Source: Dermatophagoides farinae (taxonomy: Eukaryota; Arthropoda; Arachnida; Sarcoptiformes; Pyroglyphidae). Taken from it: a stretch of DNA of 64,000 bases. Made by a program: the position numbers and the translations under genes. Within the stretch, counting starts at the first letter, position 1, and every line of letters starts with the position of its first letter. Of this stretch, positions 54,757-62,919 are shown piece after piece. Where the stretch lies: positions 3,417,001-3,481,000 of the forward strand of contig NC_134684.1 of the NCBI RefSeq assembly GCF_024713945.1, read 5' to 3'. The notes beneath the pieces were generated by a model, which searched no databases, was not told where the DNA came from, and worked only from the letters and a program-made list of their open reading frames with translations.

Positions 54757-57419
54757 ATGTCAACATCAAAGAATTCGATTCATAAACAATATTCATTGGC
54801 TGCCTGTGAATTTGGCAATGCTAACATTACAACTGCTGCCGGTTCAGCTGTCGATCACCCACCACCACCGTCTTCGATGAAAATTAAGTAAGTTTTTTTT
54901 TATTTTCATTGTTCATTTTTGTGTATTCAATTTGATCGATCGATTTAACGATTGATTGATTTTTGTTGGATTATATTTATAATAATAATAATGATGATGA
55001 TAATTTTTCTTTCTTTCGTTTTGTTTTCTTTTTCTATTCACTCTATTCACACACCCTAATGATGATTCGATCGGATCAAAAAAAAAAAAAAAATAATAAT
55101 AATAATCGACAATAATCATCACAGACATCATATCCATAACTTGTTCGAAATGATTGATAAAGAAATCGATTCGTTAATTAATGAAAACATTTTATGTAAG
55201 TGTAGTTTATTTTATGATCACATATAATCATCATCATTCTTCGGTACTGCTTCTTGTTTTTTTTTATTTATTTCGTTATTATTAAACAAAAAAAAATTTC
55301 TGGCTGCTCTGGTGTTGTTCGGTGTATATATTCATACCAATCAAACCGTAGCCAATTAACCTTACAAATTGAATTATAATTGAAGATAATTTTGTTTTGT
55401 TTTTTTTTCGTTTGTTTTGCCAATGTCAAATCTGTTTTTTTCTCTTTTTTATTTTTTTTGGTAATAATTTGTTCAAAATTATCATAATACTAATATGTTT
55501 TCATTGTTTAATATTTCATCGTTGGCCAACATAGTGAAAGAACGTATTGAAACGCTTGAAGAATTGATTGAAAACACTGGAACACAACAGACAACATCAA
55601 CAGCTACAGCTATTGGTGGTGGTGGTTCGACAATTTTAACAACTACAGCATTACATTCATCATCATCATTGGATAATGCTGGTAATCTGATAAATCGAAA
55701 CATTTTGTCACAACAAAAACCATACCATCATCATCAAGTACAACAACAACAACAACACCAACATCATCATCATCATCAACAACAACAACAACAGCCGACA
55801 CCATTTTCCGTTAGTTCGGTCAAACGTGACTCAATGGTTGCAGGTATATTATAAATTTGGGTTATGATCATTGTTCCAGTTGAACTAATAATTATAATCA
55901 TTTTCAATCCAAACACTATGGATTTCACATCACAATGGTTATTAGCATCACAATTATCGCAGAAAATTAAATCAACATATAAACTAAAAACTTCTAGTAA
56001 AATATTCAAAGGTCAAAGTAATAGCAGTAGTAGCCATCTGATTGGTACATATGAATGGCATAAAGATGGTATTTGGTATATAACGTCAAGCCAAAAAAAT
56101 GGCCATCAATATATTGCTACGGCTTCAGCTGGTAAATATTTTTTGATTTTTATTTCAATTTTTCTTGTTATTCATAATTTGATTTGCACAGATTCGACCA
56201 TTAATGTTTGTGATGTGACACGTATTGATTATAATCTAACACCATGTGTCATCTATGCTGGCCATCAATCATCGGTTAATTGTGTAAAATTTCATTATGC
56301 TAATGATCTCGTCTTAACGGCTTCTGGTGATGGTACAGCTCATATATGGCGATTTAATCCCGATTTATTTGTAAGTTTAATTCAATTTTTTGATTGATTT
56401 AAAATTATAATCACGTATTCATAAATAGCGGTCAGATTATGATGGCGAACAAATGGGTGAAGAAGCTACGATCATTAAGACACCGTTACATGAATTAGAT
56501 GATCATCATAATGTAGTCGTATCATGTGATTGGATGTCTGGCCTTGAACAATGTGTAACAGCAAGCTGGGATCAAATGGCCAATATCTATGATTATCAAA
56601 CCGGTGAATTAATTGTACAATTAGCCGGACATGATCAAGCATTGACCGATGTTTGTGCTTGTGAATCAACAAGATTGATTGTAACATCATCACATGATAC
56701 TACATTTCGCTTATGGGATTTTCGTGATGCTATACATTCGGTTAGCGTGTTTCAAGGCCATAGTCGATCGGTTACATCAACTTGTTTTTTGGGTGCAGAT
56801 AAAATTCTTTCCGGTGGTGATGATCGTAATGTTAAAGTTTGGGATGTAAGTATTATTGTTCAGTTATGTTAACATTTTTATTTTTGAATATTTCATTTTG
56901 AATTTCAAATAGCTCAAAAATATGCGTTCACCTTTGATCACTATTTCTATGGAATCTGGTATTAATAAATTATCTGTATCACAACAACATAACTTATTTA
57001 CCATACCGTTGGATAATCGCAATGTTCGTATCTATGATATAAACGGTAATCGTATCTGTCGTTTATCACGAGATTCCCATAATCGTATGGTAACATGTGC
57101 TACTTGGCTCGATCCGACCAGCACTATTACTGGTACATCAACAACTTCCAACATTATTCAACAATCATCACAATCACAACCACAACCACCACCACCGCCA
57201 CCATCATCATCAACATCGACGGCTACATCATCAACATCGATGATTATGTCACCACCACCACCGCCATTATCAAAAATATCGGATACAAGTAACACTTCTG
57301 CTATGGGCACTGGTAATGGTGGTTCTGATTTTTTCAATAACAATAACAATACACTTACATTGTTCACTTGTGCATTTGATCGAAGAGTATGTGCTTGGAA
57401 TATAGTCATTGAAAAATAG
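54757..57419 (+). CDS. WDR37: WD-repeat protein 37
   Basis: Seven exons: 54757-54887, 55125-55195, 55535-55843, 55946-56131, 56192-56370, 56429-56845, 56913-57419; phases agree and lengths sum to 600 codons (599 residues; human 494). An N-terminal coiled-coil (HNLFEMIDKEIDSLINENILLKERIETLEELIEN) precedes SQLSQKIKSTYKLKTSSKIF, both typical of WDR37. The seven-bladed propeller follows with WD-type ends: HIWRF, NIYDY, FRLWDFRD, NVKVWDLKNMRSP, VRIYDINGNR, ACAWN-like VCAWNIVIE. WDR37 binds PACS proteins and affects ER calcium handling in vertebrates. The extra length is a Gln/His run in exon 3 and a Ser/Pro insert in exon 7 between the last two blades, both from CAA/CCA repeats. Confidence 0.95.
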
Positions 57420-57839: not shown

Positions 57840-60800
57840 TTAGATAAAATATTCTCGTTTAACCGAAACATCTGGTCCAGTAGTAGACTTAATGACAGCT
57901 GTATCCGGATCTAAGGCAGTATCAGCACCTTGATCTTCATGTGTAACATATTCACCTTTTTGACGGGCAATAAAACGGCTACTTGCAAAACAGAATAATA
58001 TTAAAAGAACAATCAATGCGGCAAGAAAACCGCCAATTATGGCGCTTGTTGAACCGGGTGAAAATCCACCAGGAATCTTGTCGCCTGGTCGTAATGTTGG
58101 TGGTGGTCGTGCTTCATGAATATCTGTAAATTAATTAGAATTAGAATTACCATGAAATTTTTTTTTGCATAAAATGCATCGATTTTATTTACCTGGTGGA
58201 TGTGTAGGCGGTTCAATACCACATTTATCTTCGAAAATTTCAGCATCCGATGGAAAAGCACGTACATTGCTTCGTTTATTTTCCTGATATAATCGTCGTA
58301 ATGGAAAATGATCATCAAAAGTGACACGAGATATACAGCCAATGAATCCTTCACCTGAATCCATTGTTTCATTACGGCCAATATAGATACTTTTCAGACG
58401 ATTGAATTGTGCTTCAGCTTTATCGCTTATTTTGTATGTATAATATTTTGGTTCATAATTGTCAACCCAGATGATCACTTTGCTTCCTTTGTCTGCACGA
58501 CGAATAGTAATATCATGATGTTGACCGAGAGCAAAATTTTCTTCTTTAATAATAATTTCTTGACGTTCAAAACCAAAATCAAATACCAATCGTAAATGGC
58601 CACTTGATGACATGAGAAGATTTAAATATTCACCAGTATACGATGAAATGCCATAGATAAGACCACGATGTTCTGTAGTGGTGAAACCAACACGAATATA
58701 TTCTTCCATTGTCGAAATGGTCGTTTCAAAATCATAACGAATAAAATAATCTGAACGAAGATTGACACCAATTTCATCGGCACAAATAGGTCCTTTGAAT
58801 GCTGTCCATTGACAATCACAACTATAGCCATTATATTCTTCAATACAGGTTCCATTATTCAAACATGGACTGGATTCACATTTACCAACACAACCTTCAT
58901 AGATTCCCCAAATACCACGAGCATATTTACGTAGCTCTACCGATTCACCATTGATAACCAATGCTCGCATACAGCCCAAATATCCTTCACGATATTCAGT
59001 GGTAGCACCGATTATAAAATAGCTTGTCAAATATAATGGAAAACTATTGTCAGCATTTTCTCTGTTTTCATTCGTATAACGGCCATCAACCACCAGACGA
59101 GCTTCTTTTTTATTCTTTTCCACCAAAATGGAATGCCATTGATTATCATTCAAACGGAACGGTGCTTCTACTGAAACCTGTTGTAATCCGGTACCGGAAC
59201 TATAACTAAATTGAATAGACTTATCATTGACAATGGCTAATTTGATAAAATCTTCTGGACCAGTAGCATGAAATAATACACCATATTCAGTGGTCGTTTT
59301 GAATTGCAAATAAATATCGCTTGCTTGTTCAAAATTTTGTGTCAATGGAATTTCAATGGTTGCATCACTGTAACGGAATGTGACAATATCATGAAATAAT
59401 AGATCACCATCGCATATTAATGGACCTAATGTAAAACGGCCATAACGATCATTTTGTTGGCTAGATAGACCAGTATCACCAACACGAATCTGTCGTACAG
59501 GCAGATATTCAAGCTGTGTGATTTCACCTTCATCAACAAGTTCTTGATTCGAGCTTGAATCACAATTGCACCATTTTTTAGGATCATAACAATTTCCGAA
59601 TAATCCACATTGACATTTTCGTGTTCCAGGCAATCCACCGGCCCAATAGTCCATTTTTTGATTATCTCTTGATACCCACCATGTATGTGGTGAAAATGTT
59701 TGCTTTTGAGCTGTTAATCAAGATAGAAAAAAATTACAATTAAAATAAATCATTCAACAATAGATATATAGATTTACTTGGTGAATTTAAAAGTCGTGCA
59801 TTACGGCATTCATATTTCAATTTTTGACGACAATTATCGGAACGATTAACTAGATGAACAATCTGTTCTAAAGGTGCATCATATTTTATATCTTGAATAT
59901 ATGAACCTGGTTGTAGAAATCCTTGCACTTTTTGCGGTGCTTCGTTCTGATGATGAATCACAGTTTCGATTGTGTTTTCAGCCGTTTGTAAACATGTAAC
60001 CCAGAATGGCTCCAATGGACCACTGCCATCAACATCGATTTTAATATCTTCACGTTTTGTATTTGGATTATCATTCATAAAAGCGGTACAAGAAAATGGA
60101 TGTCTTGGAACATGACAAACTGCACCCAGATAACCGCTATCACCACAATCACAAGCAAAACCTAAATGATTTTGTTTGCATGTTCCACCATGTTCACATG
60201 GATTTGGATGGCATCGATCAATCATTTGACATGATTTTATCGTAATATCACTTTCCTGAACTTTGTGTATATTTTCTGAGCCAATCATTTCTGGATTGAT
60301 GAAACGATTTTCAATGTAAATCCAACGCATACAACCAATAAATCCACGATATGATGGAATACCACCACCAATTGTATATTTTTGACCAGTTTGCATTTGG
60401 AATGTTCTAATGGTGGTACTTGGAATACCATCTAACGTCAAAATGATTCGATTTCGTTGTAAAGCTATCTGAACATTATGCCATGAGCCATCGTTTAATT
60501 TACGATCAAATGGTTCAAGTGGAACTTGTGGCGTTTCATCACCAGTAGTCGGATCAACACCTTGAATTTTCAACATAAGTTTACCATTCTTTAGAAAAAC
60601 GGCAAAAAAGCCTTTGATTGAAAATTGATGATAAATAAGTAGGCCATAATCGTTGAATGTTCGAAAATCTAAACTAGCATTGAGCACATTGTTCATATTG
60701 CCCAAAACATTTATATGTGATTCACGTGTGTTGAATGTAATCGGTATCACAGGTTGAAATTGGCAGGTATAATGGATGTTTCCAAAAATTTTATATACAA

Positions 60801-62919
60801 AATTTTTGTTATTATAATCATCTTGAATTTCATGGGCAATGTTGGTAGTGTTGAAACTAAGATTCTCAATACAGCCAGTAAAATTTTTTCTTGTATTGAT
60901 AAAACCGGTCAAATAACCGGGAAGGCCACCAATATAAAGATCATTGTTAAGATCAAGACGATTGAAATCCGTTTTCAAACGATATTTAACGACAACACGA
61001 TCGACACTGAATGTCAATTCACGACCTTGTCTTGAAATGAATACATCATGCCAAAGATTATCGTCAAGTAGGCTACCAGCCGATATGGTATCGACAATAT
61101 TCTCGCCTAAATCAAGTGTCAAAAGAAGTTTATTCTCGACCAGCTGTAAAGCCATCAGATCGCCTTGGATACCGGTACCGTATAGAATATTACCGAATGC
61201 TTCATTCGTACGGAATCTAAAACGGAATACATCATCGAATGATGATGATATAGGTCGAATATCAAGATTCATTTTAATGTAGGAATTTCCATCGAAATTT
61301 AATGAAATAGCATCTGAGAAAAATGGAATTAAAAATATGAATTTAAAAAAAAATTTCCTAGTTTTTTTTCTCTCAAAACTTACGATAATCGCATCCATAC
61401 AATTGAATACGCATCGATATACGATCTCTCCATCGGGTAGGATTGATTCGTACAAATTGAGCAATTATAGGTGGATCAAAACGATTTATGACCACACTGT
61501 TGCCATCAGTGTTTCCTTGGAATAGCTAATAACGAAAAAAAAATAAATATTATTCGTCTGTCATACATACATAGATGAATGACATGCAATGAAAAAAAAG
61601 GAAATCAATCAATGTTAATTGACAGAATTTAGAATAGACAAAAAACATGAATGTATGCCTCTTTATATGTAGAATTGCGCGTGTATACTGCATGCCAAAA
61701 ATGACCATCATCCGAACATGATACATAGAATGCCGATACAAATGAATTGGAATTCGGATGTCCTTGTGAAGCGATTGCATTCACCATGTAACGTTTGCCA
61801 AGATCGATTGTCAGATATTGTTTAAGATTTCCATAGGCTGCAGTCCATGATGATTCGCCTTTAAGTTTTGTTTTTGTTTTTTGTTTTTTGACAAATTGCG
61901 TGAGCCCAAAAGAGAAAATATTTTTGGAAAAAATACCGAGAACAAGTGAATAAGAAAAAAGAGAACAGGAAATAAGAAATACCGATAATCGGTTTTTGGT
62001 TAATTTGTTTATGGATAGACATGCAAATCATTTAAATAAGAAGCATGTCAACATGTCAATCGATAGATGAGGCAAAAAAAATCAAAAAAAAGTACAGAAA
62101 ATCAAAGCAAATGAAATGATGACTATCTTCCAATAGAAATGATTATTATTGTGAACCCCATACAGAGAACAAGAATTTTCAAAATTTTATGCAAACCTTT
62201 ATATTTCCATTACGATCTCTATAGATATTATAATCATGGCCATCTATACCGCTTTCTAATTTAAATTCTTGTACAAATTCCAATGTATTCTGTCGACCTT
62301 GTGTACCGATGGCCGATATATTATATTGACGGCCCAGATCGATTTCAATATATTGAGATAGATCATTATGAGCAGCTGACCAAGCGGATTGGCCTGATAT
62401 TTATTCACAATTTTATCATCATTGATTATTATGAAATAGAAACAAAAACAAAAAAAGGAGCGGAAAAAATTGCAACATAAAAACAAAACAAAACAAAAAA
62501 AAATAATAAAAAACAAGCGAAAAAAATGTGCTAAATGCAGAAAAAAATAAATGAAAATTATCATTATCATTTACGAACCATGAAGTATGGCAGAATAAGC
62601 ACTTTTATCTTTGCTTATATCCGATGAAGATGTTATCCGTATTCTTTTTTCAATGAAATTCGAATGTATTAGTTCATTATTACAATGATCACCTAGGTGA
62701 TGATAACCAATTTGATTGTTTATTATTAGTTAATTTAAAAAGGAAAATAAACTTACTTGCATTGATGATCGGTGTTACTATACAAACAATGATTAGAATT
62801 ATCAAATTAAACATATATGATGATGATAATAAATAATTTCGATTGCTGATGGTGTTTGATTTGTTGACTGTTGTTGTTGTTGGATATTTACAATAAAATT
62901 GATTCAACAAAGCCATCAT
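57840..62919 (-). CDS. Nrx-IV: Neurexin IV / contactin-associated protein (septate junctions)
   Basis: Single-pass adhesion protein of septate junctions and glia-neuron contacts. Exons: 62919-62757, 62692-62579, 62393-62197 (or 61858-61659), 61525-61384, 61313-59778, 59710-58193, 58123-57840; sums to 1317 residues (fly about 1280). Order: signal peptide (MFNLIILIIVCIVTPIINA, perhaps starting at 62814), discoidin/FA58C (HCNNELIHSNF to MRIQLYGCDY), LamG1, LamG2, EGF (CEHGGTCKQNHLGF), fibrinogen-like (WVTCLQTAE to MDYWAGGLPG), LamG3, EGF (CLNNGTCIEEYNGYSC), LamG4, a membrane helix (AIIGGFLAALIVLLILFCF) and a cytosolic tail RFIARQKGEYVTHEDQGAD that fits the protein-4.1 (Coracle)-binding juxtamembrane site. 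It ends EYFI, the PDZ-binding tail of fly Nrx-IV. Two alternative discoidin exons are present. Confidence 0.96.
61659..61858 (-). other. Nrx-IV: Alternative discoidin exon B of neurexin IV
   Basis: Encodes GESSWTAAYGNLKQYLTIDL, then GKRYMVNAIASQG, FYVSCSDDGHFWHAVY and YKE. Acceptor CTTAAAG at 61859-61860; phase 1 in, phase 0 out, identical to exon A. The donor is either GAG|GCATAC (GC type, at 61658) or CAT|GTTTTT at 61646, which would extend the exon by four codons; both keep phase. It can replace but not follow exon A without duplicating the domain core. Confidence 0.8.
62197..62393 (-). other. Nrx-IV: Alternative discoidin exon A of neurexin IV
   Basis: Encodes GQSAWSAAHNDLSQYIEIDL, GRQYNISAIGTQG, FVQEFKLESGIDG and YNIYRDRNGNIK. 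Acceptor ATCAG, donor AAG|GTTTGC; phase 1 in, phase 0 out. Homologous to exon B along its full length, with only about 40-45% identity by eye. Confidence 0.85.

What the first reader, a model, noticed from the sequence alone, without database searches (positions are those of the whole stretch)
61659..62393. Two homologous, phase-matched exons in the neurexin IV discoidin domain: mutually exclusive splicing
Seen: exons at 62393-62197 and 61858-61659 each start in phase 1, end in phase 0, and encode the same discoidin segment (QSAWSAAHNDLSQYIEIDL versus ESSWTAAYGNLKQYLTIDL) with clear homology but much divergence. Only one can be used to make an intact domain. Known: Drosophila Nrx-IV has mutually exclusive exons 3 and 4 in this domain, giving glial and neuronal forms. 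Inference: if the mite pair is orthologous, the arrangement predates the chelicerate-insect split; otherwise it arose twice. I saw no perfect ACTAAY (HOW/Quaking) site in the introns between them.
Basis: partly seen in the sequence, partly recalled or inferred. Interest (0 to 1): 0.8.

Follow-up and report, generated by a model that had tools for sequence, protein, structure and literature searches.

The report
Swappable neurexin IV exons in mite
A mite's neurexin IV gene, which encodes a cell-adhesion protein of nerve and skin cell junctions, carries two diverged copies of one exon, and the reading frame survives only if exactly one is used, as in the fruit fly's version of the gene; whether flies and mites share one ancient switch is still untested.

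Summary
Confirmed with corrections. On the minus strand (62919-57840) lies a complete Nrx-IV/CASPR gene. Exons A (62393-62197) and B (61858-61659) encode the same discoidin segment (26/65 identical; each matches Pfam F5_F8_type_C alone). With either alone the frame runs 1317-1318 residues to the C-terminus; with both it stops at codon 174, with neither at 99. B's stated end needs a non-canonical GC donor; a weak in-frame GT lies 12 nt downstream, but the GC end fits discoidin spacing better. B's acceptor has no adjacent pyrimidine tract; the best tract lies 92 nt upstream in a 262-nt AG-free zone, as in distant-branch-point exons, though a nearer branch-point-like site also exists. Introns flanking A and B are 133-338 nt, the other four 64-70. 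Long-range RNA pairing is not supported, and no HOW site lies in the flanking introns. Best reading: a functional mutually exclusive pair, a new member of a known kind. Orthology with Drosophila exons 3/4 could not be tested; no RNA or arthropod relatives were available.

The parts
62757..62919 (-). exon 1: start codon and signal peptide (signal peptide judged by eye)
   Evidence: ATG at 62919, donor CAA|GTAAGT, phase 1
62579..62692 (-). exon 2: start of the discoidin domain, shared by both forms
   Evidence: acceptor CCTAG|GTG; donor ATG|GTTCGT (weak, 5 of 9 U1 positions); an out-of-frame GTAAAT donor overlaps it 4 nt downstream
62394..62578 (-). intron 2-A, 185 nt; AG-free zone 135 nt; best 20-nt pyrimidine tract ends 54 nt before the acceptor AG of exon A
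62197..62393 (-). exon A (2 nt plus 65 codons): alternative discoidin segment
   Evidence: Pfam F5_F8_type_C 6.0e-11; donor AAG|GTTTGC
61859..62196 (-). intron A-B, 338 nt; 262 nt without any AG before the acceptor; best 20-nt pyrimidine tract ends 92 nt before the acceptor AG; branch-point-like TTGAC (two) and TTAAC 140-196 nt upstream, and nearer ones down to CTCAC at 41 nt
61659..61858 (-). exon B (2 nt plus 66 codons): alternative discoidin segment; acceptor CTTAAAG|GC, donor GAG|GCATAC (GC)
   Evidence: Pfam F5_F8_type_C 1.6e-9
61647..61658 (-). possible 12-nt extension of exon B (AYIH) if CAT|GTTTTT is the donor
   Evidence: also in phase 0
61526..61658 (-). intron B-4, 133 nt, with a pyrimidine tract next to the acceptor
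61384..61525 (-). exon 4: end of the discoidin domain, shared by both forms
   Evidence: Pfam match of the joined domain 7.1e-27 with A, 2.9e-25 with B
59778..61313 (-). exon 5: laminin G domains; EGF match just under its cut-off
58193..59710 (-). exon 6: laminin G domains, EGF
57840..58123 (-). exon 7: transmembrane stretch, short cytoplasmic tail ending REYFI
   Evidence: transmembrane stretch read by eye

Best explanation
Exons A and B are an old tandem exon duplication in the Nrx-IV gene of this mite, spliced as alternatives so that each protein carries exactly one version of the central discoidin segment. Shown by sequence: phases and lengths make either exon alone productive, while both or neither shifts the frame and stops early. 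Inferred: nonsense-mediated decay removes mis-spliced messages; exon A, with a GT donor and a nearer pyrimidine tract, is the easier choice; exon B, with an AG-free zone of 262 nt, a displaced pyrimidine tract and probably a GC donor, needs activation, or repression of A, in some cells. Steric hindrance across intron A-B is unlikely: the first branch-point-like site inside B's AG-free zone is 85 nt from A's donor, while this gene's ordinary introns are only 64-70 nt in total. Inferred: the swap changes loops that in other discoidin domains meet the ligand (two of the three tip loops fall in the segment, by recall) and moves an N-glycosylation sequon, and so changes the binding partner.
For: Both exons hit F5_F8_type_C alone and complete the domain in context: 94.5 bits with A, 89.3 with B. 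A-B 26/65 identical, z 14.9; among the loci fetched from this genome each is the other's best match (59.3 bits; next a discoidin-domain-receptor-like exon, 37.4 for A and 28.1 for B). Frame outcomes of six exon combinations. Neutral decay of A: at 180 and 240 events (mean DNA identity 49-57%; A-B is 51%), 0 of 1500 copies in each of four runs kept an open frame and the similarity score; an open frame alone was kept in 0.8-2.1%. Flanking introns 185, 338 and 133 nt against 64, 70, 67 and 69 for the other four. AG-free zone before B 262 nt: 0 of 5000 base shuffles of the intron reach it; 8 of 3709 AG-free runs on both strands of the window, B's included, are as long. Gooding et al. 2006 (PMC1431707, passages) state that all experimental examples of distant-branch-point exons are alternatively spliced, some mutually exclusive. 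No allelic copy and no close second Nrx-IV gene was found in the assembly: the best other match of exon 5 is 27% identical.
Against: There is no RNA evidence. B's stated donor pairs with U1 at only 4 of 9 positions and is GC; the GT 12 nt on has 5 and a GT inside B (61785) scores 5.5. B's acceptor has only 6 of 22 pyrimidines nearby. B could therefore be used rarely or not at all. Nearer branch-point-like sites exist before B (41 nt) and A (37 nt), though without a tract behind them, and the cited paper says not all large AG-free zones mark distant branch points. B carries one extra cysteine in the segment. Long AG-free zones are not unique in this AT-rich genome. B's constraint was measured against a simple substitution model, not related species; at a milder divergence (120 events, about 67% identity) 0.2-0.4% of neutral copies still passed.
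Confidence: 0.82

Rival explanations
1. Exon B is a decaying relic of the duplication; only exon A is used and the gene makes one discoidin form.
For: Weak GC donor, purine-rich sequence just before the acceptor; no transcript evidence.
Against: 66 open codons at about 51% DNA identity to A, with the discoidin pattern kept; 0 of 1500 neutral copies in each of four runs near that divergence match this; Pfam hit 1.6e-9.
Confidence: 0.12
2. The pair is mutually exclusive because paired RNA elements compete, as in Dscam: the A-rich tract before B pairs with the U-rich intron before A and loops A out.
For: The A-rich tract and the intron 2-A U-rich tract form a duplex of -17.0 kcal/mol; 4% of 300 shuffles reach it; 14 of 14 complementary bases in one stretch (I16).
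Against: One of five targets tested, so 4% is not significant; both tracts are low complexity; the whole region folds no better than 30 shuffles (-198.4 against a mean of -198.3).
Confidence: 0.08
3. Mutual exclusion is physical: B's branch point lies too close to A's donor for A and B to be joined (tropomyosin type).
For: B has a long AG-free zone, so its branch point may lie far upstream.
Against: AGs at +69 and +73 of the intron limit the zone; the branch-point-like sites in it start at +85, more than the full length of this gene's ordinary introns (64-70 nt).
Confidence: 0.06

Closest known systems
Drosophila Nrx-IV mutually exclusive exons 3 and 4 (Rodrigues et al. 2012, known here through passages of the review PMC11893892)
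   Same: Same gene family and one of two exons chosen; by recall, the Drosophila exons also lie in the discoidin domain.
   Different: No ACTAAY (HOW/Quaking site, motif recalled) in the three introns flanking A and B; exon-by-exon homology with the fly pair not tested; no cell-type data here.
Distant-branch-point exons of alpha-tropomyosin, alpha-actinin and PTB (PMC1431707, passages)
   Same: Long AG-free zone and pyrimidine tract set well back from the acceptor; involvement in alternative, sometimes mutually exclusive, choice.
   Different: Candidate branch points in the AG-free zone lie too far from the upstream donor for steric exclusion; no branch point mapped; nearer candidates also exist.
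C. elegans let-2 regulated splicing with a weak GC donor (Farrer et al. 2002, cited in PMC7242645, passages)
   Same: A weak GC 5' splice site at a regulated exon.
   Different: Different gene; use of the mite GC donor is inferred, not shown.

Membership tests
Nrx-IV/CASPR family | Signal peptide, discoidin, laminin G and EGF domains, transmembrane stretch, short tail | tested here: met
   Pfam F5_F8_type_C, Laminin_G and EGF matches (the EGF match in exon 5 is 20.9 bits against a 21.5 cut-off, in exon 6 it passes); signal peptide, transmembrane stretch and tail REYFI read by eye
Nrx-IV/CASPR family | Discoidin segment groups with CASPR2 in a tree | tested here: inconclusive
   A+B+CASPR2 as one clade not rejected (p 0.23) but not found; by path the mite DDR is nearer to A and B than CASPR2 is
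Mutually exclusive exon pair (criteria of Kassiopeia, PMC3923563, passages) | Similar length, homology, same reading frame | tested here: met
   197 and 200 nt, 26/65 identical, same phases
Mutually exclusive exon pair (criteria of Kassiopeia, PMC3923563, passages) | Compatible splice-site pattern | tested here: inconclusive
   B needs a GC donor or a weak GT 12 nt downstream
Mutually exclusive exon pair | Transcripts with one and only one exon | not testable with these tools
   no RNA data
Ortholog of the Drosophila exon 3/4 pair | A and B each group with one insect exon | not testable with these tools
   no arthropod sequences in reach; scans of viral and prokaryote contigs with exon 5 empty
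HOW/Quaking-regulated exon | ACTAAY in the flanking introns | tested here: not met
   0 in introns 2-A, A-B and B-4; the two nearest upstream within the gene are in exon 2 and intron 1, the latter overlapping a branch-point-like site
Distant-branch-point exon | Long AG exclusion zone (100 or 150 nt in the cited paper) with upstream pyrimidine tract | tested here: met
   B 262 nt; A 135 nt, which passes only the lower limit
Distant-branch-point exon | Mapped distant branch point | not testable with these tools
   needs lariat mapping; nearer branch-point-like sites exist

The most novel reading that the evidence does not exclude
The mite pair is orthologous to the fly pair, so a two-form switch of the Nrx-IV discoidin domain predates the split of chelicerates and insects, while its control was rewired from HOW sites in the fly to a distant branch point with a GC donor in the mite.
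Probability: 0.35. Interest if true: 0.66.

Novelty: new member of a known kind. Interest (0 to 1): 0.42.

Why it matters
If the pair is shared with insects, the choice between two Nrx-IV adhesion forms would be very old, and comparing mites and flies would show which residues set partner choice and how splicing control changes while its outcome stays. If it arose twice, the discoidin segment is a repeated target for making alternative adhesion surfaces. Either way it gives a compact gene (about 5 kb) in which the question can be tested.

Tried and rejected
HOW/Quaking site in the flanking introns: none, although the genome has two places matching the STAR dimer family; of these L019 was compared with solved structures and matches quaking best, L020 was not compared. 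Long-range RNA pairing: not significant after five targets. Pyrimidine-tract-binding motifs: intron A-B holds 6 TCTT and 5 YTCTYT, the three other introns counted (1, 2-A, B-4) hold none; a rough head estimate from base composition puts this little above expectation, so nothing is claimed.

Second copies: the region itself matches only itself plus two short low-complexity stretches. Exons 5 and 6 have only weak other matches (best 27% and 29% over long stretches; short 41-44% ones on C2). L022 (C2, 27%) holds laminin G domains and no discoidin match was listed beside it; it may be another member of the neurexin superfamily. L023 (C2, around 4.13 Mb) is a large mosaic receptor-like gene with a discoidin domain, not Nrx-IV, judged by eye. 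Discoidin exons on contig C1 look like discoidin domain receptors (L001 and L008 read, the third not).

Tree of the segment with 10 rows (CASPR2, FV, FVIII, NRP1 domains and one mite DDR): A and B join with support 78/78, not decisive; A with CASPR2 (p 0.10), B with CASPR2 (p 0.12) and all three together (p 0.23) are not rejected; no branch is starred. Without insects it says nothing on shared origin.

Literature: nine searches, seven of them on Nrx-IV or on such exons in arthropods or mites and two on mechanism. I saw listings only, cut for (20 of 11,068, 20 of 1,103, 12 of 1,780, 8 of 28). No listed title reports this pair in mites; annotation databases were not searchable. Papers seen as passages: PMC11893892, PMC3195077, PMC10647682, PMC3923563, PMC7242645, PMC9013439, PMC1431707 (the last also as outline). 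Three Drosophila papers asked for by id are not held.

Structure prediction was not tried, because spliced proteins are not letter-for-letter in the DNA, as that tool requires.

Full report
What is there. The minus strand from 62919 to 57840 holds a Nrx-IV/CASPR gene with exons 1, 2, A or B, 4, 5, 6 and 7. The translated forms have 1317 residues with A and 1318 with B, both ending GPDVSVKREYFI. Pfam finds the discoidin, laminin G and EGF domains. The genome is a 62.4 Mb assembly in 22 contigs. No allelic copy of the region and no close second Nrx-IV gene was found; the best other match of exon 5 is 27% identical and that of exon 6 is 29% (these searches score only the best candidates).

The two exons. 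A (65 codons) and B (66 codons) share 26 of 65 aligned residues, 14.9 SD above shuffles; A and B share 20 of 62 and 17 of 62 with human CASPR2, against 21 of 45 for the shared exon 4 part. Each alone passes the Pfam cut-off, and each completes the domain (94.5 and 89.3 bits). Among the loci fetched from this genome each is the other's best match (59.3 bits, next 37.4 for A and 28.1 for B). Codon-position identity between them is 0.52, 0.60 and 0.42 over 65 codons, as expected if protein sequence was kept, though not tested for significance. If B were a free-running copy of A, reaching about 51% DNA identity would leave an open frame in 0.8-2.1% of cases, and 0 of 1500 in each of four runs kept B's similarity score as well; at 67% identity 0.2-0.4% still did. 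The model has no insertions or deletions, which makes it lenient.

Frame logic. Exon 2 ends in phase 1; A and B each add two bases plus whole codons; exon 4 starts in phase 0. Using both gives a stop at codon 174, using neither at codon 99. This holds whether B ends at the GC or at the GT 12 bases on.

B's splice sites. A GT donor 12 nt downstream has 5, and an in-phase GT inside B at 61785 scores 5.5. In all, one search lists seven in-phase GCs in B up to 61659 and four in-phase GTs inside it, so phase alone does not single out the GC. Spacing does favour it: from the aromatic residue after the DG-type turn to the F of FxGN there are 13 residues with GC and 17 with the downstream GT (3 with the GT at 61689), against 12 in A and 11-13 in 5 of 5 human domains measured (CASPR2, FVIII C1 and C2, FV C1 and C2; NRP1 domains not measured). 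Pfam also prefers GC slightly (89.3 against 86.4 and 85.9 bits). GC donors make up 0.7% of protein-coding junctions in Drosophila, and a weak GC donor is essential for regulated splicing of let-2 in C. elegans (PMC7242645, passages).

Displaced signals. In the 22 bases before the last three of the intron, B has 6 pyrimidines, A 8, the five other acceptors 12-17. The best 20-nt pyrimidine tract ends 92 nt before B's AG and 54 nt before A's, inside AG-free zones of 262 and 135 nt. Base shuffles of intron A-B reach 262 in 0 of 5000 cases; those of intron 2-A reach 135 in 2.5%. Over the window, both strands, 8 of 3709 AG-free runs are at least 262 nt (B's included) and 94 at least 135, so the B value is unusual but not unique. 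This is the pattern that Gooding et al. used to predict distant branch points (PMC1431707, passages); they add that not every large zone has one. Twelve branch-point-like pentamers lie in B's zone, from 252 down to 41 nt before the AG, and the nearest, CTCAC, is followed by A-rich sequence, not a tract. The other introns of the gene are 64-70 nt, those around A and B 133-338.

How it probably works. One exon is chosen per message, the frame removes errors, and A is the easier choice while B is the regulated one. The last two points are inference. HOW is a poor candidate for direct control here, because its site is missing from the flanking introns, although STAR-family genes are present. RNA pairing has no support beyond chance. 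In the protein, the exchanged segment holds a sequon NIS in A and NST in B, and one cysteine in B only; by recall of discoidin structures, two of the three tip loops that meet ligands lie in it.

What is known. [quoted passage not shown] So the kind of switch is known. What appears new is its presence in this mite gene with different splice signals; none of the seven relevant searches listed a report of it. Shared origin cannot be judged: there are no arthropod sequences in reach, and the small tree is weak (A with B 78/78; by path the mite DDR lies nearer to A and B than CASPR2 does).

Verdict. A real and most likely functional mutually exclusive exon pair; a new member of a known kind, with an untested and interesting evolutionary question attached.

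Noticed in passing
62571-62579: Exon 2 ends at two overlapping donors, GTTCGT (in frame with A and B) and GTAAAT four bases on (out of frame for both), so the shared upstream donor is itself weak.
   Followed up: partly
61785, 61740, 61725 and 61689: Four in-phase GTs inside exon B would give in-frame but shortened discoidin segments; the one at 61785 (ATG|GTGAAT) has the best U1 pairing of the B donors scored.
   Followed up: partly
L001, L008 (contig C1) and G000:C1:3315798-3316025: Three intron-split discoidin exons lie within about 90 kb on contig C1; the two read look like discoidin domain receptor genes (a possible cluster).
   Followed up: partly
L019, L020: Two places match the STAR dimer family; L019 best matches the solved quaking structure, so a Quaking/HOW-type factor exists in this mite.
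   Followed up: partly
L022 (G000:C2, around 6.20 Mb): A laminin G gene 27% identical to Nrx-IV exon 5, perhaps a diverged neurexin-superfamily member; no discoidin match was listed near it.
   Followed up: partly
L023: A very large reading frame with a discoidin domain, Nrx-IV-like modules and, by eye, LDL-receptor-type repeats, leucine-rich repeats and transmembrane stretches: an odd mosaic receptor.
   Followed up: partly
55855-57419: A WD-repeat gene on the plus strand lies tail to tail with Nrx-IV, about 400 bases from its stop codon (identified by eye from the reading frames).
   Followed up: no
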